This document shows positions 13,617-33,117 of a stretch of 38,109 bases of DNA, in pieces. The stretch is from Chryseobacterium gleum (lineage in GTDB: Bacteria; Bacteroidota; Bacteroidia; Flavobacteriales; Flavobacteriaceae): positions 1 to 38,109 of the forward strand of contig CAMDGB010000022.1 in assembly GCA_945897915.1 (NCBI GenBank), written 5' to 3'. The position numbers were made by a program, and so were the translations under genes. The notes under the pieces were generated by a model that worked only from the letters and a program-made list of their open reading frames with translations, was not told the origin of the DNA and ran no database searches. Position 1 is the first letter of the stretch, and every line of letters starts with the position of its first letter.

Positions 13617-14108
13617 CTATTTATTTAATTGTTGCTTTTCAGCAATAGTAAAAACTAAAGACTGAGTAGCGTATTTTTTTATATATTCCTTTAAATCAAG
13701 TGATTGTTTAGGAAACAAAAGTAGAATTTGTTTTTTATCTGCTTCTATATTTCCTTTGTATTTTAGTAATTTAGGTGTGTTTTCCTGAATGCTTAATCTG
13801 ACAAGTCGCGCTTCCAAATTATTTGGATTGGCTTTTATCACAGCTTCCAAAATAGTCACTCCTTTAATAAAACCTTCTTTTTTTTGCTTTACTCCAGAAG
13901 TAAATTTTGATTTCAAAGCGATTGAGGCCCCTTTATATGCTAATAAAGTTTCATCATTTTTTGAATATTTATTCATAAAATCATAAAACTTATTTGTGTT
14001 TGTATTGGAATCAGAACAAACAACATACATTTTCCGAATGTCTGTTAAGTTATAACTCTGAAAAACAGAAAAAGTTATTGCAAATACTATGGAAAAAATT
14101 ACTTTCAA
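13617..14108 (-). CDS. Small secreted protein of unknown function
   Basis: 163 residues with a signal peptide (MKVIFSIVFAITFSVFQS). The mature part is helical and basic; NPNNLEARLVRLSIQENTP resembles a tetratricopeptide helix, so a short helical-repeat fold is plausible. It starts 4 bases inside the dehydratase gene (ATGA overlap) and ends 1 base before the glycosyltransferase start, so it is translationally coupled with pigment genes. I do not recognise the family. A periplasmic partner of the exporter or glycosyltransferase is a guess. Confidence 0.8.
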   Translation of the reverse strand: MKVIFSIVFAITFSVFQSYNLTDIRKMYVVCSDSNTNTNKFYDFMNKYSKNDETLLAYKGASIALKSKFTSGVKQKKEGFIKGVTILEAVIKANPNNLEARLVRLSIQENTPKLLKYKGNIEADKKQILLLFPKQSLDLKEYIKKYATQSLVFTIAEKQQLNK

Positions 14109-14482
14109 GAAGAAGTTTTTTTATAAGTATTTGATAATTTCAATGCTACGGTTTCTTCAAAACTTGTAGTGTTTTTGACTTTAATTTCAGAATTTTCGTT
14201 TTCTGAAATTTCTAAATTTAAAACTAATTTTGAATTGACTTCTGGATTTATCAAAGCCATAAATTTAACGTTAGAAGTACTTACCATTGTTAAGTTTGTG
14301 TTTAAAATACATTCTGTTATTTCTTTAACAATTTGCATCATACAAACCCCTGGGGTCACAGGATTTCCAGGGAAATGTCCCTTAAAAATATCGTGATCTT
14401 TATTTAAAGTAATGGCTGCACTATATTTATTTACGTCCGTATTTTCAATACTATCAATTATATAAAAATCTTTTAAAAGCAT
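14105..14482 (-). CDS. FabZ/ApeI-like hotdog 3-hydroxyacyl-ACP dehydratase (His kept, Glu replaced by Gln)
   Basis: 125 residues, one hotdog domain, shorter than FabZ (about 145-150). The active-site loop GHFPGNPVTPGVCMMQ holds the catalytic His36. The residue 14 positions later, where FabZ has its catalytic Glu, is Gln50. The dehydratases at 25333 and 25793 show the reverse pattern, so it may work as a heterodimer with one of them. Role: removing water from 3-hydroxyacyl-ACP during polyene elongation. It is the first gene of operon 2, with a promoter box 19 bases upstream and a 4-base overlap with the next gene. Confidence 0.85.
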   Translation of the reverse strand: MLLKDFYIIDSIENTDVNKYSAAITLNKDHDIFKGHFPGNPVTPGVCMMQIVKEITECILNTNLTMVSTSNVKFMALINPEVNSKLVLNLEISENENSEIKVKNTTSFEETVALKLSNTYKKTSS

Positions 14483-14500
14483 AAGTTATTTTATTTAGTA

Positions 14501-14508
14501 CAAAAATA
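14501..14508 (-). promoter_or_regulatory. -7 promoter element TATTTTTG for operon 2
   Basis: Exact TAnnTTTG match on the minus strand, in the 58-base gap between the palindromic terminator and the dehydratase start. Transcription would begin near 14494, giving a leader of about 12 bases, as is common in Bacteroidota. A -33 TTTG is not clear. Confidence 0.5.
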
Positions 14509-14540
14509 CATTTATGAAAGTTAATATAAAACTAAACATA

Positions 14541-14570
14541 AAAAAAAGTCAACAATTGTTGACTTTTTTT
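14541..14570. terminator. Perfect palindromic terminator separating the two pigment operons
   Basis: AAAAAAAGTCAACA and TGTTGACTTTTTTT flank a central AT dinucleotide; the entire 30 bases are a perfect palindrome with a T-run on either strand. It lies 15 bases past the stop codon of the barrel protein gene (minus strand) and before the operon 2 promoter. Confidence 0.8.
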
Positions 14571-14584
14571 TCAAATTGTAAATA

Positions 14585-15220
14585 TTAAAATTTTGCAGTA
14601 ACACCTATTTGGTAAGTAATAGCGTCTTGACCATCATAAACATCAACCACGCCTTTCTTAATTCTGGCTTCAATACCGAAGTTTTTAGTAAAGTCAATTC
14701 CAAATCCACCAACAAAACCAATATCAATAGCGGAGTAATCATTATAATTATCATAATAGTTGAAGTTATATTGATTGTAAGAATAATTGTTGTCTAAAAC
14801 TTTTTTCTCTGGAGAAATATTTATATCTAAAGACGGGCCAGCTTGAAAATATGCTTTGTTTATGAAAAATTTATTCATTAAACTTAAAGTTAAGTAGTGA
14901 ACTTTAAACTCAGCTGTTTGGTTTTGAGTCACATTTGAATTTTTATCTGGAATGGAAATTGTAGTAACATATTCCTTTTTAGAACCTTCTTTTGAATAGC
15001 CAATTTCAGGCTGTAAAGCATAAAATTTAGATAGCTTTAGTTCCCCAAACCCTGCAATATATAAATCAGTTATTGCAGAATATTTTTCATTTAAATCATC
15101 ATTCTGAGTTAATCTCGAAAAATTTACTCCTCCTCTAATACCAGGTTTAAAGCTAACTTGAGCATTAGCTATAATTATACCGCCAATAAAAATAGCAAAT
15201 AAATAAAATGTTTTTTTCAT
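14585..15220 (-). CDS. Outer-membrane beta-barrel protein (PorT/OMP_b-brl family)
   Basis: 211 residues with a signal peptide (MKKTFYLFAIFIGGIIIANA, cut before QVSF). The mature part alternates short amphipathic beta strands with polar loops: FKPGIRGGVNFSRL, KFYALQPEIGYSKEG, YFQAGPSLDINI, and a final strand ending in GVTAKF with a terminal Phe, as is usual for Bam-inserted barrels. An eight-strand barrel fits the length. A Tyr/Asn-rich loop lies near residues 143-160. It follows the lipoprotein gene by 1 base and ends operon 1. It could help anchor or place the pigment in the outer membrane, but may be a generic barrel. Confidence 0.82.
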   Translation of the reverse strand: MKKTFYLFAIFIGGIIIANAQVSFKPGIRGGVNFSRLTQNDDLNEKYSAITDLYIAGFGELKLSKFYALQPEIGYSKEGSKKEYVTTISIPDKNSNVTQNQTAEFKVHYLTLSLMNKFFINKAYFQAGPSLDINISPEKKVLDNNYSYNQYNFNYYDNYNDYSAIDIGFVGGFGIDFTKNFGIEARIKKGVVDVYDGQDAITYQIGVTAKF

Positions 15221-15221
15221 G

Positions 15222-15836
15222 TTAATAAATTATTTGATTAAATTCTATTTTTAGTTTAATATTTTTGTGTTGAATTGTGATATTTTCTGCAAAACTAGGT
15301 TTTTTTGAGTGAAATGTAAAAATTACCCTCTCCTTTCTTTTATTGGTTTTAATAATTTTATTTAAATTATTTGTAATTAAATCATTATAAAAGTACAGTT
15401 TATTTTTGGTTTGATAAATGATTTCGTTTTTTGTTTTGTACGTTTTCATTACGTTATGGTTGACTTGTAATAAAGTTCTGAAATCATTTTTAAGAGTATT
15501 AATGATTATCTTCTTGTTAAGATTATTAACAATAAAATTTAATTTAAAACTGTTTTCTGAAATTTCAAAATCTAATAATTTATTTCCAAAATCTGTTGTT
15601 AAAACCATCCTGTGAAGGCTATCATTTAATCGTTTAGTTATAAAAATTCCGCTTAATTGATTTCCATAAATTTCAATATGAGTTTTATATACATAATCAA
15701 TTGATTCCTCTAAAAAATATTGATTTTGAACAATTGAAGTCGTATTTTCAACTCCAACTGCATAAGGAATTTGATACGATTTACAAGATAAAAAAAGATA
15801 TAGGAAAGCGCTAATTAGTAAATACCGAATCATCAA
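15222..15836 (-). CDS. Lipoprotein of unknown function in pigment export block
   Basis: 204 residues (or 203 from the second ATG). The signal ends LYLFLSC, Cys18 being the probable lipid-modified residue. The rest is beta-rich with little homology I can name. The block MVLTTDFGNKLLDFEI is vaguely like the DUF3261 lipoproteins that accompany aryl polyene clusters, but this is weak. The start overlaps the end of the LolA-like gene by about 26 bases, indicating tight coupling. Likely a periplasm-facing or outer-membrane lipoprotein acting with the LolA-like protein. Confidence 0.75.
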   Translation of the reverse strand: MMIRYLLISAFLYLFLSCKSYQIPYAVGVENTTSIVQNQYFLEESIDYVYKTHIEIYGNQLSGIFITKRLNDSLHRMVLTTDFGNKLLDFEISENSFKLNFIVNNLNKKIIINTLKNDFRTLLQVNHNVMKTYKTKNEIIYQTKNKLYFYNDLITNNLNKIIKTNKRKERVIFTFHSKKPSFAENITIQHKNIKLKIEFNQIIY

Positions 15837-16437
15837 TTTTTGTATTTATTATTTTATTTTTAAATGTAATTTTTGTGTAATCGCCTGAAGATTCTATTAA
15901 TTTTACTTCAGAAAGAGTATTTTCTTTTAATGGAAAATGTAAATCAATTTGCTTAATCATTTTTTTGATTACTGCCGTTTTAGGTATTAATTTTGCAATA
16001 TAATGTTGATTGTTTTTAAAGTAAGAAATATCAAATTCTTTATCGTCAAACATATTCCCGCTTACACTTCCAATGATAAGTTTATTGATTTTTTCGAAAA
16101 TTTTACTTTTAGCATCAACTGTACTTTTTTTACCTTGATCATTAATATAAACTTTATTGTTTTTAAAAATAATACTGTAATGATATGGCTTTGTATATTG
16201 CCAACTTAATAAATTTGGTGATTTAAAATTTAATTCCCCAGAACTTTTAATGTCTTTCGTTAAAAAATCCATGTGTTTTAGTTGAACGAAATTCGTTTTA
16301 ATAGTTTTAATAGTTTTAGATTGACTTTCAAATGTTTCCTTAAATTTAGAAATTTCTTGAGCTGTCATTTTTTGCTCTTGTGGTATGATTTTAAAACTAT
16401 AAATGGCCAGTACTAAAAGTAATATTTTCATTTTCAT
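15811..16437 (-). CDS. LolA-like periplasmic carrier protein
   Basis: I chose the Met at 16437, because it leaves a clean signal peptide (MKMKILLLVLAIYSFKIIPQ). A longer in-frame form starting at 16464 puts basic residues before it and overlaps the deacetylase gene further. The mature protein matches the LolA fold: TIKTNFVQLKHM, then SSGELNFKSPNLLSWQYTKP (the hallmark region after strand 2), then SIIFKNNKVYIND. LolA carries lipoproteins across the periplasm; the version in aryl polyene clusters probably carries the hydrophobic pigment or its lipid form. It still overlaps the deacetylase stop by about 40 bases. Confidence 0.85.
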   Translation of the reverse strand: MKMKILLLVLAIYSFKIIPQEQKMTAQEISKFKETFESQSKTIKTIKTNFVQLKHMDFLTKDIKSSGELNFKSPNLLSWQYTKPYHYSIIFKNNKVYINDQGKKSTVDAKSKIFEKINKLIIGSVSGNMFDDKEFDISYFKNNQHYIAKLIPKTAVIKKMIKQIDLHFPLKENTLSEVKLIESSGDYTKITFKNKIINTKIDDSVFTN

Positions 16438-17191
16438 CTTTCGAAATTTCAAGTAATTCATCAATAGTTATAGTTTTATAACTTTCTGATTGCAAAAATA
16501 GCAATAACTGTTCCAAAACCGAAACTGTTTTTGTAGAAGTATCATGCAATAATATAATACTCCCTGGTTGCACTCTTTTTTTTATTCTCTCTAAAATTAA
16601 GTTTTCACTTTCTATAACCGTGTCTAATGAACGTATATTCCAACCAATAGCTATTTGATTGGTTTTAGAAATAGCTTTTGCAATATTCGGATTTGTGATT
16701 CCAAATGGAGGTCTATAGAATCTAGTTTTTACATTTACCAGTTGAGTTATTAATTCATTAGTTTGTACAATTTCAGCAACTATTTTTTCTGTCGGAAAAA
16801 AACCATTTAAATTAGAATGAGAGTAGGAATGATTGCCAATGTTATGACCTTCAGTAATTATTCTTTCAACAGTTTTTGGATATTTTTCAATCTGTTTTCC
16901 GATGAAAAAAAAAGTGGCTTTTGCATTATATTTCGATAATAAATCTAAAATTTCAATCGTTTTTTCGTGTGGACCATCATCAAAAGTAAGTGCAATAACT
17001 TTGTCTTTACATGTGTTTGATTTAGAAATATTTCTTGAAAAATAATTCAATCTCATGTCGAATGCGCCCCAAGTTGTAATTCCTAAAAAGGCTAAACACA
17101 ATACAACGTAAGAAACTGTACTAACTTTTATAAAAAAGAAAAATAGTAGCAGAATAAAAAATAAAAAAACAGAATATTTATGTTTTAACAT
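16397..17191 (-). CDS. Polysaccharide deacetylase (NodB-type, membrane-anchored)
   Basis: 264 residues. Two hydrophobic helices occupy residues 7-42. The NodB catalytic domain follows: TFDDGPH (69-75, catalytic Asp plus metal-binding Asp), the metal-binding His pair in GNHSYSH (His121, His125), FYRPPFG, and ILLHD near residue 220. This is a full motif set, so an active carbohydrate esterase 4 deacetylase is expected on the periplasmic side. Its substrate here is unknown; it may deacetylate a sugar added by the cluster's glycosyltransferase or act on an acyl group of the pigment. It overlaps the chain-length-factor gene by 7 bases. Confidence 0.87.
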   Translation of the reverse strand: MLKHKYSVFLFFILLLFFFFIKVSTVSYVVLCLAFLGITTWGAFDMRLNYFSRNISKSNTCKDKVIALTFDDGPHEKTIEILDLLSKYNAKATFFFIGKQIEKYPKTVERIITEGHNIGNHSYSHSNLNGFFPTEKIVAEIVQTNELITQLVNVKTRFYRPPFGITNPNIAKAISKTNQIAIGWNIRSLDTVIESENLILERIKKRVQPGSIILLHDTSTKTVSVLEQLLLFLQSESYKTITIDELLEISKDENENITFSTGHL

Positions 17192-18246
17192 TTGGATAAT
17201 AGTACTAAACTATGTTCTTTACCTTGAAACTGATTATATAAAAGTGCTTTTGAAAAATTAGATTTCTCAATAGCATTAATTTTTACAATTGATGGAATAA
17301 CTTGATTTTTAAGAATTGAAGCTGCAACCCAAAATCCAAATGCAGAAGCCGTATTGAATTCACCACATAAATGTTTGTAATAAATTTGCGGAACTTCATT
17401 AAAAATTTCCCCTGCAATTATGTAATATTCATCAAAATTGATATCACCATTGTTTCCAAAAACAACCGTATCAATATCTTCTTTTTTTAAGTTATTCTTA
17501 TTTAAAAACTCACTTATAAAACTTTCAATTTCATTAGGCTCTAATTCATTTTGAATTTGTAAAGCTTCTAAAACAGCATAAGTACTTTCTTTTTGAACAT
17601 TTTCAAGAGTAACGAATGTTGCACCTTCGCTATAAACTACTCCAGAAGAATTGGAATTTAAAACAGAATAGGGTAAATCATTTTCTTTTTTAATAATATT
17701 AGTAAGTTTAAATAACTCCATTGTATGTGAAGATGTTTCATCTGCAGCACCAACTAAAATGGTATTTTCTTCCTTGTTTTCAATTTGCATTTTTGCATCT
17801 AACAAAGCAGATTCAAAAGAAATGGCGCCATTCACATAAGTAAAATTATAACCTTTACAACCTAACCCTAAAGCAATTTGTGCGCCAACTGTGTTATGAG
17901 TTGATTGTATAAAATTGGTTGGCGTTAAATATTCTTCGTTATTATCTATTAATGCCTTTAAAAATTTTTCTGAATCTTCAATGCACCCCATTCCAGTTCC
18001 TGTAATAATCGCGTCTGGAATAGTAATATTCGCTTCTTTTAAAGCTTTTGTAGAAGCTGCTATACTAATTTTAACAACTTTTGACATTCTTCTTGCTGCT
18101 GCTGGTGAAATTAATTCTTTATAAGATGGTTGAATCGCGTACACAACATTTTCCGTTGTATTGATTATAACCGATTCTAAGAAAGAAGTTTCAAAAGTAT
18201 CTTGAGCTGAGACGCATCCCATGCCATTAATGTAGCACTTTCCCAT
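17185..18246 (-). CDS. Ketosynthase-like chain-length factor (no catalytic Cys)
   Basis: 353 residues with a ketoacyl-synthase fold (MGKCYINGMGCVSAQ start, HNTVGAQIALGLGC near 117-130). The nucleophilic-elbow region reads TYVNGAISFES (136-146), where active ketosynthases have ACSS or ACASG, so the catalytic Cys is absent. This matches ketosynthase-like chain-length factors (ApeC type) of aryl polyene systems. The start overlaps the stop of the ketosynthase gene as TAATG, so both are probably made in equal amounts and form a KS/CLF heterodimer that sets polyene length. Confidence 0.85.
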   Translation of the reverse strand: MGKCYINGMGCVSAQDTFETSFLESVIINTTENVVYAIQPSYKELISPAAARRMSKVVKISIAASTKALKEANITIPDAIITGTGMGCIEDSEKFLKALIDNNEEYLTPTNFIQSTHNTVGAQIALGLGCKGYNFTYVNGAISFESALLDAKMQIENKEENTILVGAADETSSHTMELFKLTNIIKKENDLPYSVLNSNSSGVVYSEGATFVTLENVQKESTYAVLEALQIQNELEPNEIESFISEFLNKNNLKKEDIDTVVFGNNGDINFDEYYIIAGEIFNEVPQIYYKHLCGEFNTASAFGFWVAASILKNQVIPSIVKINAIEKSNFSKALLYNQFQGKEHSLVLLSKC

Positions 18247-19436
18247 TAGTTTTTAGAAAATATTAACGTAGAACAGTTCCCTCCAAATCCGAAAGAATTA
18301 GAAAGCACATGCTGTATCTCTTTTTCTTTAAGCGTTAATTGTGGCGTTAAATTGAATTCTGCCATATTTGTTTTAAAATTTAAATTTGGAAAAATAATAT
18401 TATTTTGAAGCGCTAAAACGCTATAAACTGCTTCAATACCTGCGGCTGCGGCTAAAGTATGACCTGTGAAAGGTTTTGTAGAACTAAAATCTGGAACCTT
18501 GTTCCCAAAAATTCTAATAATAGCTCTTCCTTCAGATAAATCATTATTAGGTGTTGCTGTTCCATGTGCGTTGATATAATCAATTGCACTTGGTTGAATT
18601 TTAGCCATTTTGAACGCTTTATTCATAGCTAAAAAAGCACCATCACCGTTTTCAGAAGAAGCCGTTTGATGAAATGCATCATTCGCATTTCCGAAACCAG
18701 CAACATAAGCTAACACTTTTTTATTTTCTTTTTGTACGATTTTTTCAGATTCTAAAACAAGAAAAGCTGCGGCTTCACCTAAATTAAGACCTTTTCTATT
18801 ATTATCAAAAGGAGCATTACACTCGTCAGATAAAATCATTAAAGTTTTAAATCCATTGATGGTAAACTTTGCTAAAGCATCAGTTCCGCCAACCACTACT
18901 CTATCAAGCTCGCCTGAGTCGATTAATCTTGCGCCAAGCATTATTGAATTTGCTGCAGAAGAACAAGCTGTACTTATTGTTGTAACTAACCCTTTTAATC
19001 CAATACAATTAGCAATTTTTTGAGAATTATCTCCAATATCATGACTGGCAATGTATTTTCTACATGTTTTATTTTCAAAATAATCGTAATAATATTTTTC
19101 AGTCATATCCATTCCGCCAACGCTAGTTGCTGAAATTAGACCTGATTTATATTCATTGATATCTACAATATTAGCATTTTCTAAGGCTTGTTTTGCCGCA
19201 ATAGCTCCTAATAAAGCAGTTCGTGAAAAATTATTATCACTGGGTAAATTAAGTTGCTCTGCTAGTTGCTGATTAGTTTGTTTGATTTCTCCTACTTTAA
19301 TCACATTTTTATGAATGGTTTCAAAATTTGAAATTGTTGAAAGACCTGTTTTTATAGAAACTAATGAATGAAAATTTTCTTCAACCGTAGTACCAATTGA
19401 AGAAATAATTCCCATGCCTGTTATTGCAACTTTCAT
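18246..19436 (-). CDS. Beta-ketoacyl-ACP synthase (FabF-type KS, partner of the chain-length factor)
   Basis: 396 residues from the Met at 19436, where MKVAITGMGIISSIGT begins the fold exactly. An upstream Met at 19502 would overlap the ACP gene and add 22 residues with no family match. The catalytic triad is visible: Cys158 in STACSSAAN, His in INAHGTATPNND, and His in KPFTGHTLAAAAG. Role: decarboxylative condensation of malonyl-ACP during aryl polyene elongation, in the cytosol. It begins 13 bases after the ACP stop and ends as TAATG with the chain-length factor. Confidence 0.9.
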   Translation of the reverse strand: MKVAITGMGIISSIGTTVEENFHSLVSIKTGLSTISNFETIHKNVIKVGEIKQTNQQLAEQLNLPSDNNFSRTALLGAIAAKQALENANIVDINEYKSGLISATSVGGMDMTEKYYYDYFENKTCRKYIASHDIGDNSQKIANCIGLKGLVTTISTACSSAANSIMLGARLIDSGELDRVVVGGTDALAKFTINGFKTLMILSDECNAPFDNNRKGLNLGEAAAFLVLESEKIVQKENKKVLAYVAGFGNANDAFHQTASSENGDGAFLAMNKAFKMAKIQPSAIDYINAHGTATPNNDLSEGRAIIRIFGNKVPDFSSTKPFTGHTLAAAAGIEAVYSVLALQNNIIFPNLNFKTNMAEFNLTPQLTLKEKEIQHVLSNSFGFGGNCSTLIFSKN

Positions 19437-19449
19437 ATATTTATCTATA

Positions 19450-19707
19450 TTATTTTGTTCTGTTTTCAGAAATATATTTTGCCATTTTTTCAACTGATTC
19501 AAAAATAGATTTTCCTTCTTTTGGATCTGCTAATCTGATTCCGTATTCTTTATCTAAAAGAACAATTAATTCTAAAGCATCAATAGAATCTAATCCTAAA
19601 CCTTCACCAAATAATGGATCATTATCGTTTATATCTTCAATTGCAATATCTTCTAAATTTAGTGCTTCAATAACTTTTGTTTTCAATTCTAACTTTAATG
19701 CTTCCAT
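19450..19707 (-). CDS. Acyl carrier protein (ACP 1)
   Basis: 85 residues, acidic, four-helix ACP pattern. Ser41 in GLGLDSIDALEL is the predicted phosphopantetheine attachment site. Located directly before its likely ketosynthase. No phosphopantetheinyl transferase gene is in the window, so a housekeeping one must activate it. It differs from the second ACP at 30887 in the segment after the serine (IDALELIVLLDK here, LDYVDLVVSIES there), so the two probably serve different synthases. Confidence 0.93.
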   Translation of the reverse strand: MEALKLELKTKVIEALNLEDIAIEDINDNDPLFGEGLGLDSIDALELIVLLDKEYGIRLADPKEGKSIFESVEKMAKYISENRTK

Positions 19708-19709
19708 AA

Positions 19710-20324
19710 TTATTTGTTATATAATGTTTGTAATATTTCTTTATTGTGTGCTATTTTTCCTGATTTTTCAACCAAATAAACAAAAGCTTTGTATTCATTT
19801 TTATAATATTCTACCCAACCACATAATACTTTTTTAGCTTTATTACTTTCTAATAAATAAGAAGTGTAATTTGACATAAAATCTGCTTTAAAATCATCAA
19901 AAACAAAAAAAGCATTTTCCGTTTTCAATTGATTTTTAATACTTATTTCACCCACGCAAATATTAGGCAAGGTATAAACAAAAACCGCAGGACTTGGAAA
20001 ATAATTTTCACTATCTGATATGGATTCTTGGTATTTTACATCTGAATCTAAACTAGAGGAATTATTTGCAAAAATAAGTGCAATGTTGTTTTCTTCTTCA
20101 ATATTAATATTGTTTTTCAAAATTGCTTCTGCTGCTAAAAAGGCTAATTTACTTAAATTATCCATCTTAAAAAATTTTGGATAGTCTAAACCAATCGCTT
20201 TTGAAGCGTTTTTTATAAACTCAGGAAACAACACTTCTTTCATTTCTATAACGGAAGTTCCATTTAGTTGAAGCGAATTATTTTCTATTTTACAATAGTT
20301 TGATATGTAATAATTTGTTGTCAA
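19710..20324 (-). CDS. Half-size ketosynthase-like protein, no catalytic Cys
   Basis: 204 residues resembling only the first half of a thiolase-fold ketosynthase: [15 protein letters not shown], then [14 protein letters not shown], then the region [19 protein letters not shown], and [10 protein letters not shown] where the nucleophilic elbow would be. No Cys, His or second-half motifs are visible. Between the ACP and another ketosynthase, 2 bases from each. It may be a structural or regulatory partner of a ketosynthase. The family has been labelled 3-oxoacyl-ACP synthase by similarity; catalysis is unlikely from the residues seen. Confidence 0.75.
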
Positions 20325-20326
20325 AT

Positions 20327-21463
20327 TTAATTTATTTTTTCAAATAATACTGCTGTATTACATCCCCCAAACCCTGATGCTGTTTTTAAGAAATATGTAA
20401 TTTCTGTTTTTTTGTTTTCTTTTAAAATAGCAATCGGGATTGAAACTCCAGAGTTTACAAATCCTTTTGAAGCTAATAATTCATTGTGGTATAACGACTT
20501 TAAAGCTATTACAATTTCTAATAATCCCGAAGCGCCTAACGTATGACCGAAATATCCTTTTAGACTATTTGTCGCAACAGTATCAATGTTTGATCTTGAA
20601 AATGCAATTGCTTCCATTTCATCATTATACAAAGTTGCTGTTCCATGAGCTGAAATATAATCCAATTTGTCCTTTCTAATTTTTGCTTCTTTAAAGGCGC
20701 TTTCAATACTTTTATGTAATCCTTCCCCGGTTCTTGATGGTCCAGAAATGTGATTAGCATCGTTTACTGCTCCGTCACCAATAATTGCAATGGCATTATT
20801 TATTGGCTTTTGTGTTGTAATAAAAACTGCTGCGCTCGCTTCTCCCAATGTCACTCCATTTCGTGAAGCATCATAAGGTGTGCAAGGCGTTTTACTTATA
20901 GCTTGAAAAGAGTTAAATCCTGAAAAAACAAATTCTGAAATTTCATCACCAGCAATTACAAATGCATTTTCGTAGGCCCCTAATTGTATCATTCTTTTTG
21001 CAACAGAAACGGCTAAAACTCCAGAAACACAGGCATTGGAAACTACAATAGGTTCCGTTTTAAATCCAAAAAATGTATTGATTTTTTTTGCTAATGTACT
21101 TAAAAGTGCATCTTCAATTGGTAATTCCTGATTTTCTAACAAAGATATGTTTCCTTTTGTTGTAGAAAGTATTAAAACTGATTTCTCAGAAATTTTATTT
21201 TTAGTAACAATGGGATGCAATACTAAAATTAGCATTTTTTCTAATTTCGTAAATTGTCTTTCATTGGTAACTTTTAAGAAACTTTCATTCAGTTTTTCAG
21301 TATCAATATTTGAGGCATAAACAGATGTAAGATTCCCAAAATTTTCATGAAATTGAATTCCAGATTGCCCATTTATTAGTGCCTCCCAATTGGTTTCTAA
21401 ATCAAAACCTAAGGGAGTAACGCAATTAGCATCGGTAATGTAAATTGGTATATTTGTTATCAT
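20327..21463 (-). CDS. Beta-ketoacyl-ACP synthase (second KS)
   Basis: 378 residues from the ATG at 21463, which overlaps the thioesterase stop as ATGA; a start at 21490 would add 9 residues of no family match. Catalytic Cys145 lies in SNACVSGVL, His in [12 protein letters not shown], and His in [12 protein letters not shown], so all three residues are kept. The N-terminal half is less conserved than in FabF ([18 protein letters not shown]). Together with the half-size KS-like protein it may form an initiation or priming synthase acting on the coumaroyl starter, an inference from position. Confidence 0.88.
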
Positions 21464-21909
21464 TTTAATAATCCTACACTTTTTTTCCATTCTTCATAAA
21501 AAGAAGGCGCATTTAATACTAAATTTCCGTCGCTATCTAAAAATACTTGAACCGTTTCACCTGTACAAGCTACTTCATTATTACTATCGTAAATTACATA
21601 TCTAAAAATCATTTTAGCAGCTGGCGAATCTACAATTTTAGTTTCAATTCTAGCCACGTCACCATATCGTAAAGATAGTTTATGTTCACAAACAGATTTT
21701 ACAATTGGCGTAGTAAATCCATACTTTTGTACATCTAAATAGGAAATTCCATGCAATCTTCCAAAAGCTTCTCTTCCGTCTTCAAAATAGGAAATATAAC
21801 AGCCGTGCCATACAATTCCTAATGGGTCTGTTTCATTAAATCGAATTCTAATATCATTAGAAACACTTAAATGTGAGGCTTCGTTATACTGCTCTTTTCT
21901 TTTTATCAT
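21460..21909 (-). CDS. Acyl-CoA/acyl-ACP thioesterase, hotdog fold (4HBT type)
   Basis: About 149 residues from the Met at 21909; a Met at 21921 would add 4 residues. The 4-hydroxybenzoyl-CoA thioesterase signature is FNETDPLGIVWHGCYISYFEDGRE, where the Asp is the catalytic base and the Tyr/Phe pair caps the site. A thioesterase here could release the finished polyene acid, free stalled ACPs, or hydrolyse CoA esters. Start overlaps the end of the ABC permease by 26 bases. Confidence 0.85.
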   Translation of the reverse strand: MIKRKEQYNEASHLSVSNDIRIRFNETDPLGIVWHGCYISYFEDGREAFGRLHGISYLDVQKYGFTTPIVKSVCEHKLSLRYGDVARIETKIVDSPAAKMIFRYVIYDSNNEVACTGETVQVFLDSDGNLVLNAPSFYEEWKKSVGLLK

Positions 21910-23179
21910 ATTTAATCGCAATAAAAATAGTAATTACAAAAAACAAAAGTAGTAAAAATATTTCTGGGAGAATTTCTACAGGGTTTGCTTTACGTAGTAA
22001 AACATCGTAAAATGCATTTAATCCCCAATTCATAGGAGAAATATGTGAAATAATTTGCATTACTTTTGGCATGGCAAATACTGGAACCCAAACTCCGCCT
22101 ATTGCAGCTAAAATAACTACGGAAGTAGCTCCAAAAGGAGCAGATTGTTCTTGTGTTTTTGCAATTGTTCCTAATAAAATTCCAAACCCAATTGCTGCTA
22201 ATCCTGAAAACAGTGCTACAACACTCAATAAAAAGAATTTTCCGTCTAAATCTAAAGTTGGTAATATTAGGTAAGGGAATAAATACATTCCAACTAAAAC
22301 CATAAGATAAAACTGAATCATACAAATTACCAAATAAGTAATTGTTTTACCTGCAATAACTATAGAGTAAGAAACTGGATTGGTTAATAATCGAATTTGT
22401 GTGCCTTGACCTTTCTCTTTAACAATGTTAATAGATAAAGGAACTATTATAAAAAAAATGGCGAATAAAGTCCAAGCTGGTACATTGTGTTGTACTGAAT
22501 TTGGGAGCACTTCTTTGTTATCAACTGTAGGCATAATTTCTTTGAAAGTAATAAAACTTTCTTGTTCAAAAATAGGCTTTTCTCCTTCTCCTAATTGATC
22601 TTGAAAAGTAGCGTATATTGATTTGGTTTCAATTTGAGAAATCATTTTATCTATACTACTTTTCACATTACTTTTAAAAGTGGCTTGAGTAGCTGGATCA
22701 AAATAAAGTCTGACTTCTTTTTTATCAATTTTTTGTAGTGATACTTCTTTTTTTGGTGCTTCAGAAAGATCTCCAATTCCGAAATTTGAAACAATTTTAT
22801 CTACATTTTGATTTACTTTCAATTGCAAATCTTTACTTAGATTATTAGGAATAATTATAGCCAATTGAAATTTTCCTTTAAAAACAGCTTCTTTGGCAGT
22901 AATTTCTGTTAAATCTTTTCCATCAAGAGAAGATATTATTTCAAACTGACCACTTTTATTTAAATTATTAATTACTGTTTTTGAAATTTCTCCTTTATCG
23001 TTATCGACTAAAATAACAGGAATTTTGCTTTCCGTAATTGTTCTAAAAGTACTATCTTGAATTAATGTAATAGTTATAATTAGTACTAAAGGCATCACAA
23101 ATAAAATGATTAAACCTCCAAAATCTCTCTTCAGTAAAAGAAACTCTTTGTAAACCGACATCCATAATTTATATATCAT
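21884..23179 (-). CDS. ABC-2 type transporter permease
   Basis: 431 residues. One helix at about 22-42 is followed by a roughly 200-residue soluble loop, probably periplasmic, then five helices from about 240 to the C-terminus, including the GVWVPVFAMPKVMQIISHISPMNWG signature before the last helix. Typical ABC-2 permease half-transporter, needing to dimerise. It overlaps the ATPase gene by 11 bases. In this setting it likely exports or flips the pigment or a lipid precursor across the inner membrane, complementing the MMPL protein. Confidence 0.9.
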   Translation of the reverse strand: MIYKLWMSVYKEFLLLKRDFGGLIILFVMPLVLIITITLIQDSTFRTITESKIPVILVDNDKGEISKTVINNLNKSGQFEIISSLDGKDLTEITAKEAVFKGKFQLAIIIPNNLSKDLQLKVNQNVDKIVSNFGIGDLSEAPKKEVSLQKIDKKEVRLYFDPATQATFKSNVKSSIDKMISQIETKSIYATFQDQLGEGEKPIFEQESFITFKEIMPTVDNKEVLPNSVQHNVPAWTLFAIFFIIVPLSINIVKEKGQGTQIRLLTNPVSYSIVIAGKTITYLVICMIQFYLMVLVGMYLFPYLILPTLDLDGKFFLLSVVALFSGLAAIGFGILLGTIAKTQEQSAPFGATSVVILAAIGGVWVPVFAMPKVMQIISHISPMNWGLNAFYDVLLRKANPVEILPEIFLLLLFFVITIFIAIKYDKKKRAV

Positions 23180-23930
23180 CGCGAAGTTCTTTACCAGTTA
23201 ATGAAATGAAAACATCTTCTAAATTATGTGCACAAGTTGTATTCTGAATCAATTGATTTGGCGTACCTTCTGCATAAATTGTTCCTCTATCAATGATGGC
23301 AATTTTCGTGCAAAAATCTTGTGCTTCAGATAAATGATGCGACGTATAAATTATTGTAGTACCTTTTGCATTAAGCTCTTTTAAATAACTTATTATTACA
23401 TTTTTAGCCTGCACATCTACTCCAACTGTTGGTTCGTCTAAAAACAAAATTAAAGGTTCGTGTAAAATTCCTGCAATAAGATTTATTCTTCGTTTCATTC
23501 CACCTGAAAACGTAACAATTTTTTTATCGGCAAATTTTAATAATCCAAGTTGGTCTAAAGCTACTGTAACTTTTTCTTTTAGATTTTTTCCTTTAAGTCC
23601 GTACATACTTCCGAAATACGATAAATTTTCTCTGGCTGTAAGTGTTGGATAAAGTGCATATTCTTGTGGAACAACTCCGATTGACTTTTTGATTTCAAAG
23701 GCATTTTTTTCATAAGTCATATTATTAATGCTGAAAGTACCTGAAGTTGGTTTTATAATTCCGCAAAGCATTGACAACAAAGTAGTTTTCCCAGCTCCAT
23801 TGGGACCAAGCAAACCATATATTTCTTTTTCTTCAATAGTAAGATTTAGATTATTTACTGAAAAACAATCTGCATCTTTATATTGCTTATAAAGTTGGTT
23901 AATTTGAATTATATTTTTGATGTTACTCAC
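23169..23930 (-). CDS. ABC transporter ATP-binding protein
   Basis: 253 residues, complete ATPase: Walker A GPNGAGKTT (42-50), Q-loop GVVPQEYALYP, signature SGGMKRR, Walker B LILFLDEP, and a switch His in YTSHHLSEA. ABCA/DrrA-like subfamily, which drives ABC-2 permeases such as the overlapping neighbour. Cytosolic face of the inner membrane. Confidence 0.93.
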   Translation of the reverse strand: MSNIKNIIQINQLYKQYKDADCFSVNNLNLTIEEKEIYGLLGPNGAGKTTLLSMLCGIIKPTSGTFSINNMTYEKNAFEIKKSIGVVPQEYALYPTLTARENLSYFGSMYGLKGKNLKEKVTVALDQLGLLKFADKKIVTFSGGMKRRINLIAGILHEPLILFLDEPTVGVDVQAKNVIISYLKELNAKGTTIIYTSHHLSEAQDFCTKIAIIDRGTIYAEGTPNQLIQNTTCAHNLEDVFISLTGKELRDDI

Positions 23931-23931
23931 T

Positions 23932-24927
23932 TTAGATTGCTTTTTTAAGTTTTTTGAAAAACTTTTCTTCTAAATCGGCAAGATGAAGCAACTGATCTGC
24001 TAAAGTATTATATACGTCTTCTAAATTACTTCTGTTTTTACAAACTCGAGACGTATTTAATGCGAAATCTCTCCACAAATCACCAATTTGAGTCATTTCA
24101 AATGAGAGCTCTTTCAATTGATCATTCTTTAAAATAACTGCTGCCTCTTGTAAAAAAGCAGCATATATAAATCTGAAACCACCGCCACCTGTTCCAATCT
24201 CTTCTTGCATACGTATCATTTGAGCTAAGTAGTGATTGGCGACTTTTATTCCTTTTGCTTTAGCCCATTTCCTAATGCTTTTTGCTAAATATCTCATGGC
24301 AGCAACACCAACAATTGGAACTGGCGCAAGCATATCATTACAAGTATTTATAATTCCTTTTTTTATGGCAAATCCCCAATTAATTTGAGATGGAAAATGT
24401 GTTGGATAATACATTTGTCCTTTTGGAGAAAGAGTCCCTTTTGCAAACCTGACTTTTTCTAACTCAACTTCTGTAAGTGTTGTTACATTTTCCATTACGG
24501 GATCACTGATTAAAAAAGTATTTCCGCTTTTACCATAAACCACTAAATTGTGTGCATTGAAATGAAAACGATATTCGTCAGGAAAATACTTTAAATTGTA
24601 AACCCCAACTTGTAGTCCTGTTGGAATATTATATTTTAAATTATTTTCTAAAGCAATTTGTGCTTTCTCAGGACTTGAAAATTTTATTCTTTTTACTTTA
24701 ATTCCTAATCTTTTTGCTGCTTTATTGAAAATAAATCCAGGCATTGTTCGGTAACTAATTGCAGGTGCTTGATTGACTTTTAATATTGGTAAATAAAAGA
24801 ATAAAAGCCCAGAACCAATGCCAAAAACCATAGGCTCACTTATATTTATTCCGTTAAATTTTAATAAATTTGAAGCTACTCCGTTTTCACAATGTGCTGA
24901 TTGATAATGTTTAAATTTGGTGATCAT
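23932..24927 (-). CDS. BtrH-like acyltransferase (BtrH_N plus DUF4872 regions)
   Basis: 331 residues. The start matches the BtrH_N domain: HYQSAHCENGVASNLLKFNG with Cys13, SEPMVFGIGSGLLF (30-43), then His126 in FNAHNLVVYG and Asp142 in LISDPV. A Cys-His-Asp triad is therefore plausible. Residues about 190-331 correspond to the DUF4872-type C-terminal half. BtrH of butirosin synthesis moves an acyl group from an ACP to an amino sugar, so this protein is a good candidate to move the aryl polyene acyl group from ACP to the resorcinol hydroxyl. That is inference; no direct evidence distinguishes it from the other acyltransferases here. Lies 1 base from the ATPase gene and overlaps the next by 1 base. 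Confidence 0.82.
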   Translation of the reverse strand: MITKFKHYQSAHCENGVASNLLKFNGINISEPMVFGIGSGLLFFYLPILKVNQAPAISYRTMPGFIFNKAAKRLGIKVKRIKFSSPEKAQIALENNLKYNIPTGLQVGVYNLKYFPDEYRFHFNAHNLVVYGKSGNTFLISDPVMENVTTLTEVELEKVRFAKGTLSPKGQMYYPTHFPSQINWGFAIKKGIINTCNDMLAPVPIVGVAAMRYLAKSIRKWAKAKGIKVANHYLAQMIRMQEEIGTGGGGFRFIYAAFLQEAAVILKNDQLKELSFEMTQIGDLWRDFALNTSRVCKNRSNLEDVYNTLADQLLHLADLEEKFFKKLKKAI

Positions 24928-25331
24928 TACGTTACTTTATAATTTATTAATTCATGAACTGAAATTTGAAATGCGTCAGCATATTTTTGTAAAATTTTGG
25001 TATTTAGTTTTTTAAATACCGTTGGTTTAATGTGTCTTTTAATACGCCATTGCCACATTCCAACATAATCGGCTAATGTTGGCCAATCCATCCTATGAAG
25101 TTCCATGTAATATGCAATTGGACTTACTTTACCTAATTTTATATTTTGTTTCGCTTCTTCAATACGTTCATTAATCGTATTTATAGAACTTTCTAAAGCA
25201 ATAGTTTTTGCTTCCCAACCGGTGCTTAATCCTGTAGTATAATTTCCATTTTCGTCTGTAGCGTAACATAATTCTTTTACATTACTTTTAGATAAATTAC
25301 TTTCATCTTGAGGTATTTCTTTTTTCTTCAT
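24927..25331 (-). CDS. Small protein with HTH-like C-terminal half
   Basis: 134 residues. Residues 1-75 are polar and helical (ESSINTINERIEEAKQNIKLGK). Residues 76-134 read like a variant Cro/CI helix-turn-helix: WPTLADYVGMWQWRIKRHI, then FKKLNTKILQKYADAFQISVHELIN, where the last part is the typical C-terminal helix pair of XRE domains. The recognition helix is unusual (MWQWRIKRHIKP). It sits between the BtrH-like gene and a dehydratase, overlapping the former by 1 base. It could be a cluster regulator or an adaptor that kept only the fold. Confidence 0.72.
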   Translation of the reverse strand: MKKKEIPQDESNLSKSNVKELCYATDENGNYTTGLSTGWEAKTIALESSINTINERIEEAKQNIKLGKVSPIAYYMELHRMDWPTLADYVGMWQWRIKRHIKPTVFKKLNTKILQKYADAFQISVHELINYKVT

Positions 25332-25332
25332 C

Positions 25333-25800
25333 TTACTTTAATTCTTGAATGAATAAATTTATAACCGCTTCTAATAAAATATTTTCTTCATGAAAAGATT
25401 GACATTTCATAGTACAAATACTATATTCATCAGAATCAAATCTTGACACTAAAATAGCAGATGTTTTTATCGTTTGATTTACTTTTGGTAACGTCGAAAC
25501 GGTAGCTTTTTTTATTCCACTAATAAAACCAACTAATTTTACATTTTCTTTTACTTCGTTATCCGCTGAAAGAAAAAAAGTTTGTCCAACAATTGAAGAG
25601 CAAGTTTGGGCTGCATTTTCGATTAATCCTACTTCCGAAAAATAATTTTTCGCTACAAAAACATTATCTTCTTTTATTTTAAAAATAGAAATTACTGAAT
25701 TCGATGTTATCTCCTCTAACACATCAACCATAAGCATTGGTTCTCTGTGCGGTAAAAAATTATTTATATTTATTCCTGTATCCTTCAAAACTTCACTCAT
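25333..25800 (-). CDS. ApeP-like hotdog dehydratase (Glu kept, catalytic His missing)
   Basis: 155 residues, FabZ/ApeP group. NFLPHREPMLMVDVL (14-28) is the conserved N-terminal block. The active-site helix is GLIENAAQTCS with Glu61 in the FabZ catalytic position. The HFPGxP loop that supplies the catalytic His is reduced to AKNYFSEV, so that residue is absent. It overlaps the next dehydratase gene by 8 bases. Likely half of a heterodimeric dehydratase with the His-bearing protein at 14105. Confidence 0.82.
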   Translation of the reverse strand: MSEVLKDTGININNFLPHREPMLMVDVLEEITSNSVISIFKIKEDNVFVAKNYFSEVGLIENAAQTCSSIVGQTFFLSADNEVKENVKLVGFISGIKKATVSTLPKVNQTIKTSAILVSRFDSDEYSICTMKCQSFHEENILLEAVINLFIQELK

Positions 25801-26239
25801 TATGTTGGGCTAAAACTGTTTTCATTTGACCGCTTGCAATTTCAACATTATCTGATAATACTGAAATATCCACTAAAGTAACTCCTGAAAATTCGTGAAG
25901 AACTTTTACTTTAGTAATAAGATTATCTTTTATTTTTGGCAATTGAAAAATTTCGATTGATTTTATTGCTCCGATATAGCCTGTAGAAGCGGGTTCGTTT
26001 TTTAAATAAAACTGATAACCTGTATATAAGGCTACTGATTGTGCCATGTGTTCAATTAATCCCGCTTCTTGAAAAATTTCGTTTTTGGTGAAAATATTTG
26101 ATTCTTCGATTGTAAAACCAGAAGTAATAAAATTTTCGCCAAAAGCGAGTACTTTATGCACCATAACAAATGGAAATTTTTGAGGAATTAATTTTCCAAC
26201 AAAATCTCGGTCTAAAATTGGTAAAACTATATTTTGCAT
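25793..26239 (-). CDS. ApeP-like hotdog dehydratase, second copy (Glu kept, catalytic His missing)
   Basis: 148 residues from the ATG at 26239, which overlaps the DarB stop as TAATG. A longer open frame to 26407 runs inside darB and has no family match. The block LIPQKFPFVMVHKVL corresponds to LPHRYPFLLVDRV in FabZ, with the structural His changed to Gln. The helix AGLIEHMAQSVA keeps Glu63. As in its neighbour, the HFPGxP loop is missing (TKNEIFQEA). The two are tandem paralogues and may pair with different partners for the polyene and the resorcinol acyl chains. Confidence 0.82.
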   Translation of the reverse strand: MQNIVLPILDRDFVGKLIPQKFPFVMVHKVLAFGENFITSGFTIEESNIFTKNEIFQEAGLIEHMAQSVALYTGYQFYLKNEPASTGYIGAIKSIEIFQLPKIKDNLITKVKVLHEFSGVTLVDISVLSDNVEIASGQMKTVLAQHNE

Positions 26240-27372
26240 TAGTACACTGTTAAAAAACAATAAGAATAAGAAAAACGACCGCTCTCTGGAACAGATAGTA
26301 GAATTTTGTCTCCTTTTTTTAAATTTCCAGAATTCATTAACTCTTCTAACATTAAGTAAATTGATGCTGAACCAATGTTTCCAACTTTTTTTAAATTCAT
26401 AAACCAACGCTCCATTGGAATTTCTATGTTTTCTTCTTTCAAAGCAGTATAAAGTCCTTTTACAAAATAATGTGAAGAAACGTGTGGTAAAAAATAAGTT
26501 ATTTCATTTGCGTTACTTTTATTTTTATCTAAAGCTTTTTTCATACTTAAAGCCCCCTTTTGTAAAACATGAGCATCTAAAAGTTTTACATCTTGTTTTA
26601 AAGCAAAAACTGAATCTGACAACCATTCGTTTGCTTTATAATCGCTCCATGGCTTTATATTTCCATCCGCTAATTTATCGCCACCCGCATACATACAAGT
26701 TTCTAATTCGTAAGCATAGGAAAAAGCTTCCATCCATTCTATCTTTAATGAAACCGATCCGTTTGATTTATTTTCTAATAAAAATGCCCCAGCACCATCA
26801 GATAACATCCAACGTAAAAAATCTTTTTTAAAAGCGACGATTGGTTGTTCTTCTAATCTTTTAAGATTGATAATTTCGTTTTCGAATTTTTCAGCTAAAA
26901 ACCAAGATGAAACTCTTTCAGAACCTGTACAAACAGCATTAGAAGTATTTCCTGATTTAACAGATAAATATCCAAATTTTAAGGCATTCATTCCGGCATT
27001 ACAAACTCCTGAAGATGAATTTAATTCAACAGATTGGTTTTGTAATAATCCGTGAACCATTGCTGCATGTGATGGCAAAAGTAAATCTGGCGTTGATGTT
27101 CCACAAGAAAGCAATTCCATACTTTTAGATGTAAATTGTTCATCAAACAATTTTTCAATTGCCATAAAAGTTAAATCTGCATTAGAATGAGTTGGATTTC
27201 CATTTTTATCTAATGCATAGTATCTATTTTCAATTCCATTGCTTCTTAAAACAATTCGTCTTGCTTTTGAAGATTCTTCATTAATTAATCCCAACATACT
27301 CTCCATATCATCATTTGATATAGGATTATTTGGCAAGAATTTACTCGATTTTGTTATATAAACTTCAGACAT
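26239..27372 (-). CDS. darB: DarB-type ketosynthase III (dialkylresorcinol synthase component)
   Basis: 377 residues, KAS III-like thiolase fold. Cys124 in SSSGVCNAGMNA, His297 in FLPHVSSHY and Asn332 in VGNIGSASIY form the Cys-His-Asn triad. It is larger than FabH (about 320), as for DarB. DarB condenses a beta-ketoacyl-ACP with a second ketoacyl unit to give a cyclohexanedione-type product, which DarA oxidises to the resorcinol. The neighbouring darA gene (12 bases away) strongly supports this call. Confidence 0.88.
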   Translation of the reverse strand: MSEVYITKSSKFLPNNPISNDDMESMLGLINEESSKARRIVLRSNGIENRYYALDKNGNPTHSNADLTFMAIEKLFDEQFTSKSMELLSCGTSTPDLLLPSHAAMVHGLLQNQSVELNSSSGVCNAGMNALKFGYLSVKSGNTSNAVCTGSERVSSWFLAEKFENEIINLKRLEEQPIVAFKKDFLRWMLSDGAGAFLLENKSNGSVSLKIEWMEAFSYAYELETCMYAGGDKLADGNIKPWSDYKANEWLSDSVFALKQDVKLLDAHVLQKGALSMKKALDKNKSNANEITYFLPHVSSHYFVKGLYTALKEENIEIPMERWFMNLKKVGNIGSASIYLMLEELMNSGNLKKGDKILLSVPESGRFSYSYCFLTVY

Positions 27373-27384
27373 TATAATTACTGA

Positions 27385-28287
27385 TTATATCTTTTTGTAT
27401 GCGCTTTTTTCATCAGCTATTTTATTAGCTATAAAAGGATATTTTAAAAGGTGCAAGATAAACACAATTGGCGATATTAACCAAATAGCAACCCATAAAT
27501 AAACATTAAAAACTTTCAACCAAGATTTTCTTGATTTTTTTTTATTTATAATGAAATTAGACCAAATTTTGAACATTTTATTAGCTTTTTTATCCATTTC
27601 TACTAAAAAAACTCTAATTTCTACAGCATCTAATTTTAATAATTGATTTTGTAATTCTATAAAATTATTATTTTTAAGTGCTGGTTTAATAACATTTCCA
27701 AATTTAAATGCGTTTTTAATTTCAGTTTCCAAAACACCTGGTTTTGGAAAAATACCTAAATATTTTGTTTTTTCACCAGAAAACATCCAATGAACTATAG
27801 TAATTACACTAATATGATTTATATTTCTATCTACTAATGCAATATTCCCAACTAAATTTGCTTTTAAATCAGTAAGAAGTACTTTCATTTTTTCTTGAGC
27901 TTTCACCCACATATTTCTAGCGCCAATAACTGTAATTACTGGTGTATTTTTGAAAAGCTGTTGAGCGAAAGTGCTTTTAAGAAATGAATTTACTGGTATC
28001 GATGGAGATAAATACCAAACTTGATAACCTAAAATAATTAAGTCGTATTTTTTTTCTAGAATAACATTTGCTGGTGTTTTTATTGGTAAAGGAACTTGTA
28101 AAAATGATTCGGGAAACGCGTCAAAAAAAGCGGTTTTATTCCACGGAAAAGGAAACTCATTCTCCATTTCAATTTTATAGTACGTTACATTAATTTCATC
28201 ATCACTTGAAAATGGGAGCGTAATCGATTCAAGTATTTCTGTAAGTTGACCTGATTGTGAGTAATGAATTACTAAAACATTTTTCAT
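27385..28287 (-). CDS. darA: DarA-type dialkylresorcinol condensing/aromatising enzyme
   Basis: 300 residues. The N-terminal 170 residues are flavodoxin-like: VLVIHYSQSGQLTEIL (FMN phosphate loop) and IILGYQVWYLSPSIPV. The C-terminal third has a positively charged stretch (NKKKSRKSWLK) followed by one long hydrophobic segment at about 260-285, suggesting membrane attachment. This matches, from memory, DarA proteins of dialkylresorcinol loci, which aromatise the DarB product. Adjacent to darB in the usual order. Confidence 0.85.
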   Translation of the reverse strand: MKNVLVIHYSQSGQLTEILESITLPFSSDDEINVTYYKIEMENEFPFPWNKTAFFDAFPESFLQVPLPIKTPANVILEKKYDLIILGYQVWYLSPSIPVNSFLKSTFAQQLFKNTPVITVIGARNMWVKAQEKMKVLLTDLKANLVGNIALVDRNINHISVITIVHWMFSGEKTKYLGIFPKPGVLETEIKNAFKFGNVIKPALKNNNFIELQNQLLKLDAVEIRVFLVEMDKKANKMFKIWSNFIINKKKSRKSWLKVFNVYLWVAIWLISPIVFILHLLKYPFIANKIADEKSAYKKI

Positions 28288-32385: not shown

Positions 32386-33117
32386 TTAAGAATAAATACC
32401 TCCATTAATATTGATTACTTCACCTGTAATGTAACTTGCTTTTTTTGAGGTTAAAAAACCAACTAATTCAGCTACTTCTTCAGCTTCTCCAAAACGATTT
32501 ACAGGAATCATTTTAACCAATTCCTTTTCATCTAATTCGCTTGTCATATCTGTTCTAATAAATCCAGGCGCTACTGCATTTACTGTAATGTTCCTTTTTG
32601 CAACTTCTTGAGCTAACGCTTTAGTAGCTGCAACTACTGCTCCTTTTGCTGCAGAATAATTGGTTTGTCCAGGAGTTCCTTTTACGCCAGAAACCGATAC
32701 CATATTTACTATTCTACCATATTTATTGCGTAACATATTTTTAATAAAAAAATTAGTAACGTTAAAAAATCCATTTAAACTAGTACTAATAACATTATTC
32801 CAATCTTCATAGGTCATCCACATAAATAAACCATCTTTAGTGATTCCAGCATTATTTACAATTACTTCCACAATTGCATTAGGATTTGCTTCTTGCCAAT
32901 TTGTTAATACTTCGTTTACTTCGTTTACATCTGAAACATTAAATTTAATTATTTCTCCTGTTGAACCATTTAATTTTACTGATTCTAAAGTTTTGTTTGC
33001 CGCTTCAATATTTGATTGATAATTAATCAAAATATGGTGTTCTTTTGACTCTGCTAATTTTTTACAAATAGCACTTCCAATTCCTCTTGATCCGCCAGTT
33101 ACTAATACACACTTCAT
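32386..33117 (-). CDS. fabG: 3-oxoacyl-ACP reductase (FabG type)
   Basis: 243 residues, classical short-chain dehydrogenase. Cofactor loop TGGSRGIGSAI (7-17), NNAG (88-91), and catalytic Ser141, Tyr154, Lys158 in SVSGVKGTPGQTNYSAAKGA. It is the only ketoreductase in the window, so it must reduce the beta-keto groups for every chain-building step unless the housekeeping FabG helps. NADPH-dependent, cytosolic. Confidence 0.93.
   Translation of the reverse strand: MKCVLVTGGSRGIGSAICKKLAESKEHHILINYQSNIEAANKTLESVKLNGSTGEIIKFNVSDVNEVNEVLTNWQEANPNAIVEVIVNNAGITKDGLFMWMTYEDWNNVISTSLNGFFNVTNFFIKNMLRNKYGRIVNMVSVSGVKGTPGQTNYSAAKGAVVAATKALAQEVAKRNITVNAVAPGFIRTDMTSELDEKELVKMIPVNRFGEAEEVAELVGFLTSKKASYITGEVININGGIYS

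What the first reader, a model, noticed from the sequence alone, without database searches (positions are those of the whole stretch)
14105..26239. Three hotdog dehydratases carry complementary halves of the FabZ active site
In FabZ the active site joins a His from one subunit and a Glu from the other. The 125-residue protein at 14105 has the His loop (GHFPGNP, His36) but Gln50 in the Glu position. The proteins at 25333 and 25793 keep the Glu (Glu61, Glu63) but lack the HFPGxP loop. Each alone should be inactive or weak as a homodimer; a heterodimer would rebuild one complete site. From memory, ApeI/ApeP-type heterodimeric dehydratases exist in aryl polyene systems. Here there are two Glu-type partners for one His-type, possibly one each for different chains, and they sit in different operons.
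Basis: partly seen in the sequence, partly recalled or inferred. Interest (0 to 1): 0.72.

Follow-up and report, generated by a model that had tools for sequence, protein, structure and literature searches.

The report
One histidine subunit, two glutamate partners
In a bacterial orange-pigment gene cluster, one small protein carries the histidine and two sister proteins each carry the glutamate of a split dehydratase active site; the histidine protein is predicted to pair with either sister, and the second sister, found intact in sampled relatives of the same family only where the pigment's resorcinol half is also encoded, would likely serve that half.

Summary
Observation confirmed. The window is a Flavobacterium-type flexirubin cluster. 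ORF 14105 is ApeI-like (His36 kept, Gln50 in the Glu place). ORFs 25333 ("P1") and 25793 ("P2") are ApeP-like (Glu61, Glu63 kept; Val47, Ile49 where FabZ has His). His and Gln are kept in 120 of 120 listed homologues, each Glu in 120 of 120, and Glu in 168 of 168 ApeP-like proteins from 111 loci, never with His opposite. The heterodimer itself is known: PDB 6QSR, "The Dehydratase Heterocomplex ApeI:P", holds the top match of the ApeI model.

New is the second Glu partner. In a family draw, 82 of 82 genomes with two ApeP genes have DarB (dialkylresorcinol synthase); 32 of 34 with one lack it. P1 sits in a DAR block around P2 and is broken in one genome without DarB. Against: only three of six independent contrasts show the link (p 0.25), and 18 of 19 DarB+ genomes outside the order have one ApeP. 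Best reading: ApeI:P2 makes the polyene; ApeI:P1 is predicted to serve the resorcinol half. Pairing and activity are untested. "Different operons" is weakly supported.

The parts
14105..14482 (-). ApeI-like hotdog protein, the His subunit (His36; Gln50 in the Glu place)
25793..26239 (-). P2: ApeP-like hotdog protein, the Glu subunit kept also in clusters without DarB (Glu63; Ile49 where FabZ has His)
25333..25800 (-). P1: second ApeP-like hotdog protein, Glu subunit linked to DarB within the family (Glu61; Val47 where FabZ has His); overlaps P2 by 8 bases
26239..27372 (-). DarB, dialkylresorcinol ketosynthase; shares one base with the P2 start
   Evidence: NF053539 665.5 bits, cut-off 550
27385..28287 (-). 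DarA-type protein next to DarB (label from position and recall; no NCBIfam match at E 1e-5)
   Evidence: Azoarcus darB-darA neighbours in PMC3949708
23932..24927 (-). BtrH-like protein, in the DAR block
   Evidence: PF14399 165.3 bits and PF16169 200.6 bits
24927..25331 (-). small HTH-like protein, in the DAR block (weak family match)
   Evidence: PF13443 17 bits, below cut-off 22; co-located
21884..23930 (-). two ABC-transporter genes of the DAR block (permease 21884-23179, ATPase 23169-23930; labels read from the sequence, not searched)
21460..21921 (-). 4HBT thioesterase that borders the DAR block
   Evidence: PF13279 57 bits
30011..30880 (-). acyltransferase-type gene on the other side of the DAR block (label read from the sequence, not searched)
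34289..35806 (-). FlxA tyrosine ammonia-lyase, the flexirubin marker
   Evidence: NF053541 891.8 bits, cut-off 700
4269..5558 (-). FlxY acyl-CoA ligase
   Evidence: NF053551 731.2 bits, cut-off 520
32386..33117 (-). FlxB ketoreductase
   Evidence: NF053542 409.7 bits, cut-off 340
14540..14571 (-). terminator-like hairpin (14 pairs) just upstream of the ApeI-like gene
   Evidence: 12 terminator-like sites against 4.6 +/- 2.1 in shuffles

Best explanation
One ApeI-type protein carries the catalytic-type His and two ApeP-type proteins each carry the catalytic-type Glu of a split FabZ site, so the ApeI protein is predicted to form two alternative heterodimeric dehydratases: ApeI:P2, likely for the aryl polyene, and ApeI:P1, likely for the dialkylresorcinol half of flexirubin. 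Shown: the residues, their conservation, the folds of the ApeI and P1 models, the gene order, and that in the family sample an intact P1 was seen only in genomes with DarB. Inferred: that the subunits pair, that only mixed pairs are active, and that P1 supplies the 2-enoyl thioester which DarB-type ketosynthases condense with a 3-oxoacyl thioester. P2 fits the polyene because it stays in clusters that lack the DAR genes, nearly all of which keep FlxA, the ketosynthases and ApeI.
Against: Outside the order, 18 of 19 DarB+ genomes tested have a single ApeP, and two genomes of one genus in the family (G537, G688) keep DarB without P1: P1 is not needed for DAR everywhere. On the tree six independent pairs differ in DarB: P1 goes the same way in three, never the other way, and does not differ in three (sign test p 0.25). 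DarB-minus clusters also lack the ABC and BtrH genes, often ACP2 and KSa too, and BtrH follows DarB better than P1 does (4.3 of 6), so P1 may simply travel with a module. No complex was modelled and pairing was not tested. The housekeeping FabZ could supply the enoyl thioester. In 6QSR chain A the Glu place is Asp, so the solved relative may keep an acid that the flexirubin protein lacks. In three DarB-minus clusters the ApeI protein has an acid of its own (Glu in G242 and G270, Asp in G744).
Confidence: 0.5

Rival explanations
1. Both ApeI:P1 and ApeI:P2 act on the polyene, for example on early and late chain lengths; P1 tracks DarB only because both belong to one cluster type.
For: DarB-minus clusters lack several other genes at once; three of six contrasts show no P1 difference; DAR without P1 is the rule outside the order.
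Against: Nearly all clusters without P1 keep FlxA, ketosynthases, P2 and ApeI and so still look polyene-competent; P1 lies inside the DAR block, and no intact P1 without DarB was seen in the family sample.
Confidence: 0.25
2. P1 is a non-catalytic subunit (P1:P2 dimer, or an acyl- or DAR-binding scaffold for the BtrH-like protein), with the Glu kept for structure.
For: P1 and P2 genes overlap by 8 bases; both lack the His; P1 sits beside the HTH-like and BtrH-like genes.
Against: Glu61 is invariant (120/120; 57/57), and the fold is FabZ-like with Glu61 in the long helix 56-76.
Confidence: 0.15
3. P1 pairs with the FabZ half of the housekeeping LpxC-FabZ protein, or works alone with other residues.
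For: That protein is the only other FabA/FabZ-like protein over the cut-off in the genome.
Against: It has its own His and Glu and such proteins act as homo-oligomers (recalled); no result here links P1 to it.
Confidence: 0.07

Closest known systems
ApeI:ApeP dehydratase heterocomplex of aryl polyene clusters (PDB 6QSR, Xenorhabdus doucetiae; Acinetobacter baumannii ApeI/ApeP)
   Same: Two hotdog subunits, an ApeI-type with the HFP loop and an ApeP-type, in a cluster with KS, KR, ACP and LolA genes; the A. baumannii paper speaks of a heterodimer with a single active site (passages).
   Different: Here two ApeP-type genes accompany one ApeI-type gene, and the ApeI Glu place is Gln; in 6QSR chain A and in 3ESI it is Asp. 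The ApeP chain of 6QSR was not read residue by residue.
Flexirubin dehydratases FlxF and FlxS of Chitinophaga pinensis (PMC3992019)
   Same: Same pigment pathway; the authors name two dehydratases for the polyene (passages).
   Different: No heterodimer and no second ApeP-type partner is mentioned in the passages seen; the DAR genes are named as a cluster apart. Which of FlxF and FlxS is ApeI-type was not checked.
FabZ (type II fatty acid synthesis)
   Same: Fold and motif positions.
   Different: FabZ carries both His and Glu on each subunit; here they are on different proteins.
HadAB / HadBC of mycobacteria (recalled; search listing only)
   Same: Heterodimeric hotdog dehydratases in which one subunit is shared by two partners (recalled).
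   Different: Recalled: there the catalytic residues sit on one subunit. Not tested here.

Membership tests
ApeI-like dehydratase (PF22818) | Pfam model match | tested here: inconclusive
   PF22818.3 precomputed on 120 of 120 listed homologues, the window's own included; local PF22818.2 gives 24.5 bits, cut-off 28.5
ApeI-like dehydratase (PF22818) | HFP-type loop with the His | tested here: met
   His36, 120/120 and 91/91
ApeI-like dehydratase (PF22818) | fold of the solved ApeI chain | tested here: met
ApeP-like dehydratase (PF22817) | Pfam model match | tested here: inconclusive
   PF22817.3 precomputed on 240 of 240 listed homologues of P1 and P2; local PF22817.2 finds neither protein; 2 of 14 P2-type and 1 of 20 P1-type relatives match it at E up to 1
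ApeP-like dehydratase (PF22817) | fold of the solved ApeP chain | tested here: met
ApeI:ApeP heterodimer | the two subunits form a stable complex | not testable with these tools
   Only single chains can be predicted here
ApeI:ApeP heterodimer | aryl polyene gene neighbourhood | tested here: met
   FlxA, FlxB, FlxY, KSs, ACPs, LolA, MMPL-type transporter
FabZ | NCBIfam equivalog cut-off and His plus Glu on one chain | tested here: not met
   TIGR01750: 37 bits for ApeI, 23.0 for P1, 18.5 for P2, cut-off 155.15; no chain has both residues

The most novel reading that the evidence does not exclude
A shared-half enzyme: one His-bearing subunit is combined with either of two Glu-bearing subunits to give two pathway-specific dehydratases from three genes, one building the polyene and one feeding the resorcinol synthase DarB, so that both halves of the pigment depend on the same subunit.
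Probability: 0.4. Interest if true: 0.75.

Novelty: new variant of a known kind. Interest (0 to 1): 0.5.

Why it matters
If true, it shows how a split active site lets one catalytic half serve two product lines, and it gives flavobacterial flexirubin clusters a dedicated source of the unsaturated thioester that DAR synthesis needs. It makes the roles of two hardly described genes directly testable by single deletions, and it would correct public records that call P1 homologues 'ABC transporter permease'.

Tried and rejected
FabZ homodimer reading: rejected, no chain of the three carries both residues. Catalytic His in P1 or P2: rejected; six of 168 ApeP-like proteins have a His one residue upstream of the FabZ His place, one has one two residues upstream, none conserved; P2 His64 next to Glu63 is 120/120 among listed homologues but Asn in many other clusters. 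P1 tied to the tyrosine-derived starter: rejected, FlxA is present in clusters without P1. A regular-expression count of the Glu mis-anchored a few rows and was replaced by an alignment-based count (its 57 P1 rows include the broken G548 copy and one lone ApeP of G158 that scores nearer the P1 profile but falls outside the P1 branch). First tree (54 loci) was superseded by the second (90 of 111 loci; 21 loci with under five of eight genes were dropped; G168 was left out of the P1 counts because its second copy scores nearer P2). The FabZ root in the ApeP tree is a very long branch and few forks are well supported, so the order of P1 and P2 origins is not settled. Papers: searches (listings, and passages of nine papers) showed no description of two ApeP-type partners; the Grammbitter 2019 JACS paper is not held and was not read.
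Full report
WHAT IS THERE. The window is a flexirubin gene cluster of a Flavobacterium-type genome: FlxA (NF053541), DarB (NF053539), FlxB (NF053542) and FlxY (NF053551) all pass their curated cut-offs, and the nearest named loci are Flavobacterium. The cluster genes from 35806 down to 4269 run on the - strand. The three hotdog proteins are at the stated places. I call 14105-14482 ApeI, 25333-25800 P1 and 25793-26239 P2.

Alignments to solved FabZ put Gln50 of ApeI opposite the catalytic Glu and Val47 of P1 and Ile49 of P2 opposite the catalytic His. In the 120 listed homologues of each (of 3429, 951 and 2210 found), His36 and Gln50 are 120/120, Glu61 120/120, Glu63 120/120. Across 111 cluster loci (88 of the window's family, the window included, and 23 from outside it; fetched), Glu is kept in 168 of 168 ApeP-like proteins (57 P1, 108 P2, 3 not assignable), and the residue in the His place is I, L, V, F or M in 164 and never His. 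Of 91 ApeI-like proteins in these loci all have the His; the Glu place is Gln in 83, His in 3, Glu in 2, Met, Lys and Asp in 1 each. The two with Glu (G242, G270) lie in genomes without DarB or FlxA matches.

KNOWN AND NEW. An ApeI/ApeP heterodimer is known: A. [quoted passage not shown] In 6QSR chain A and 3ESI the Glu place is Asp, so the flexirubin ApeI is the more fully stripped half. For flexirubin itself the literature names dehydratases FlxF and FlxS (PMC3992019, passages). Two ApeP-type partners for one ApeI were not described in the listings and passages seen.

WHAT THE SECOND PARTNER TRACKS. In a draw of 395 family genomes of at least 90% completeness, 116 have an ApeP-like match: 82 two, 34 one. 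All 82 with two have DarB (32, one of them, G404, as a partial gene at a contig end; 50); of the 34 with one, 32 lack DarB and 2 (G537, G688, one genus) have it. The 20-kb regions of all 34 were read: a second ApeP is absent in 33 and, in G548, P1 is broken by a stop; genome-wide P1-profile searches of 13 of the 34 agree. Of the 82, 51 regions were read and all have P1 next to P2. DarB+ order is thioesterase-ABC-ABC-BtrH-HTH-P1-P2-DarB-DarA-acyltransferase; DarB-minus order is mostly thioesterase-P2-acyltransferase. P2 thus looks like the resident polyene gene and P1 like part of a DAR block that surrounds it. FlxA does not track P1: 11 of 12 DarB-minus family genomes have it, as do 19 of 20 further DarB-minus regions. 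In the 80 named loci kept (the best of at least 580, chosen by likeness to P2) all have P2 followed by P1, and DarB.

RESULTS AGAINST. Outside the order 18 of 19 DarB+ genomes tested have a single ApeP, so DAR does not need P1 in general. On the tree of 90 loci six independent pairs differ in DarB; over pairings P1 goes the same way in three, never the other way, and does not differ in three (p 0.25). BtrH follows DarB better (4.3 of 6). The clade of ten DarB-minus clusters is sister to G537 and G688, which lost or never had P1 while keeping DarB. So the link is consistent within the family but rests on few independent events.

MECHANISM. Shown: split residues, folds of two of the three, order, phyletic link. 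From the literature: DarB-type ketosynthases join a beta-ketoacyl and an alpha,beta-unsaturated acyl thioester (PMC4578411, passage on the dialkylcyclohexanedione ketosynthases), the latter being what a dehydratase makes. From the genome: ApeI is the only free His-type partner found. Inferred: ApeI:P2 dehydrates the polyene intermediates and ApeI:P1 the DAR precursor.

OPERONS. Gaps are mostly 12 bases or fewer, or overlaps (exceptions 102, 57 and 55 bases); P2 overlaps both DarB and P1. A 14-pair terminator-like hairpin overlapped by a promoter-like site lies in the 102-base gap before ApeI; promoter-like sites are at chance level overall (79 against 77.3). 'Different operons' is possible, not shown.

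Noticed in passing
23932-24927: A BtrH-like protein (PF14399, PF16169) accompanies DarB in this family and in several loci of other families; BtrH is recalled as an acyl-ACP acyltransferase, so this is a candidate for the polyene-resorcinol ester bond. Azoarcus darE is called 'BtrH-like peptidase'.
   Followed up: partly
25333-25800: Public records name several P1 homologues 'ABC transporter permease', a likely misannotation.
   Followed up: no
L051 (genome G548), 5841-6173: A DarB-less flexirubin cluster with a P1 gene cut short by a stop and a leftover DarA-type gene, apparently a DAR block in decay.
   Followed up: partly
L061:9369-9746 and L070:10075-10572: ApeI-like proteins beside an ApeP gene that keep both His and Glu, in genomes without DarB or FlxA matches: possible state before the split.
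   Followed up: no
19710-20324: 204-aa protein without any Pfam or NCBIfam match between a ketosynthase gene and an ACP; its size and place recall the short chain length factor of the X. doucetiae aryl polyene cluster (211 residues).
   Followed up: no
8741-12430: A 1229-aa protein joins an MMPL/RND-type transporter to an acylglycerol-phosphate acyltransferase-type domain.
   Followed up: no
14540-14571: Terminator-like palindrome just upstream of the ApeI-like gene.
   Followed up: no
L077, L090 against L031; L081 against L094: Within one genus some genomes carry the DarB-plus and others the DarB-minus cluster type, placed far apart on the cluster tree, which hints at exchange of whole clusters.
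   Followed up: no
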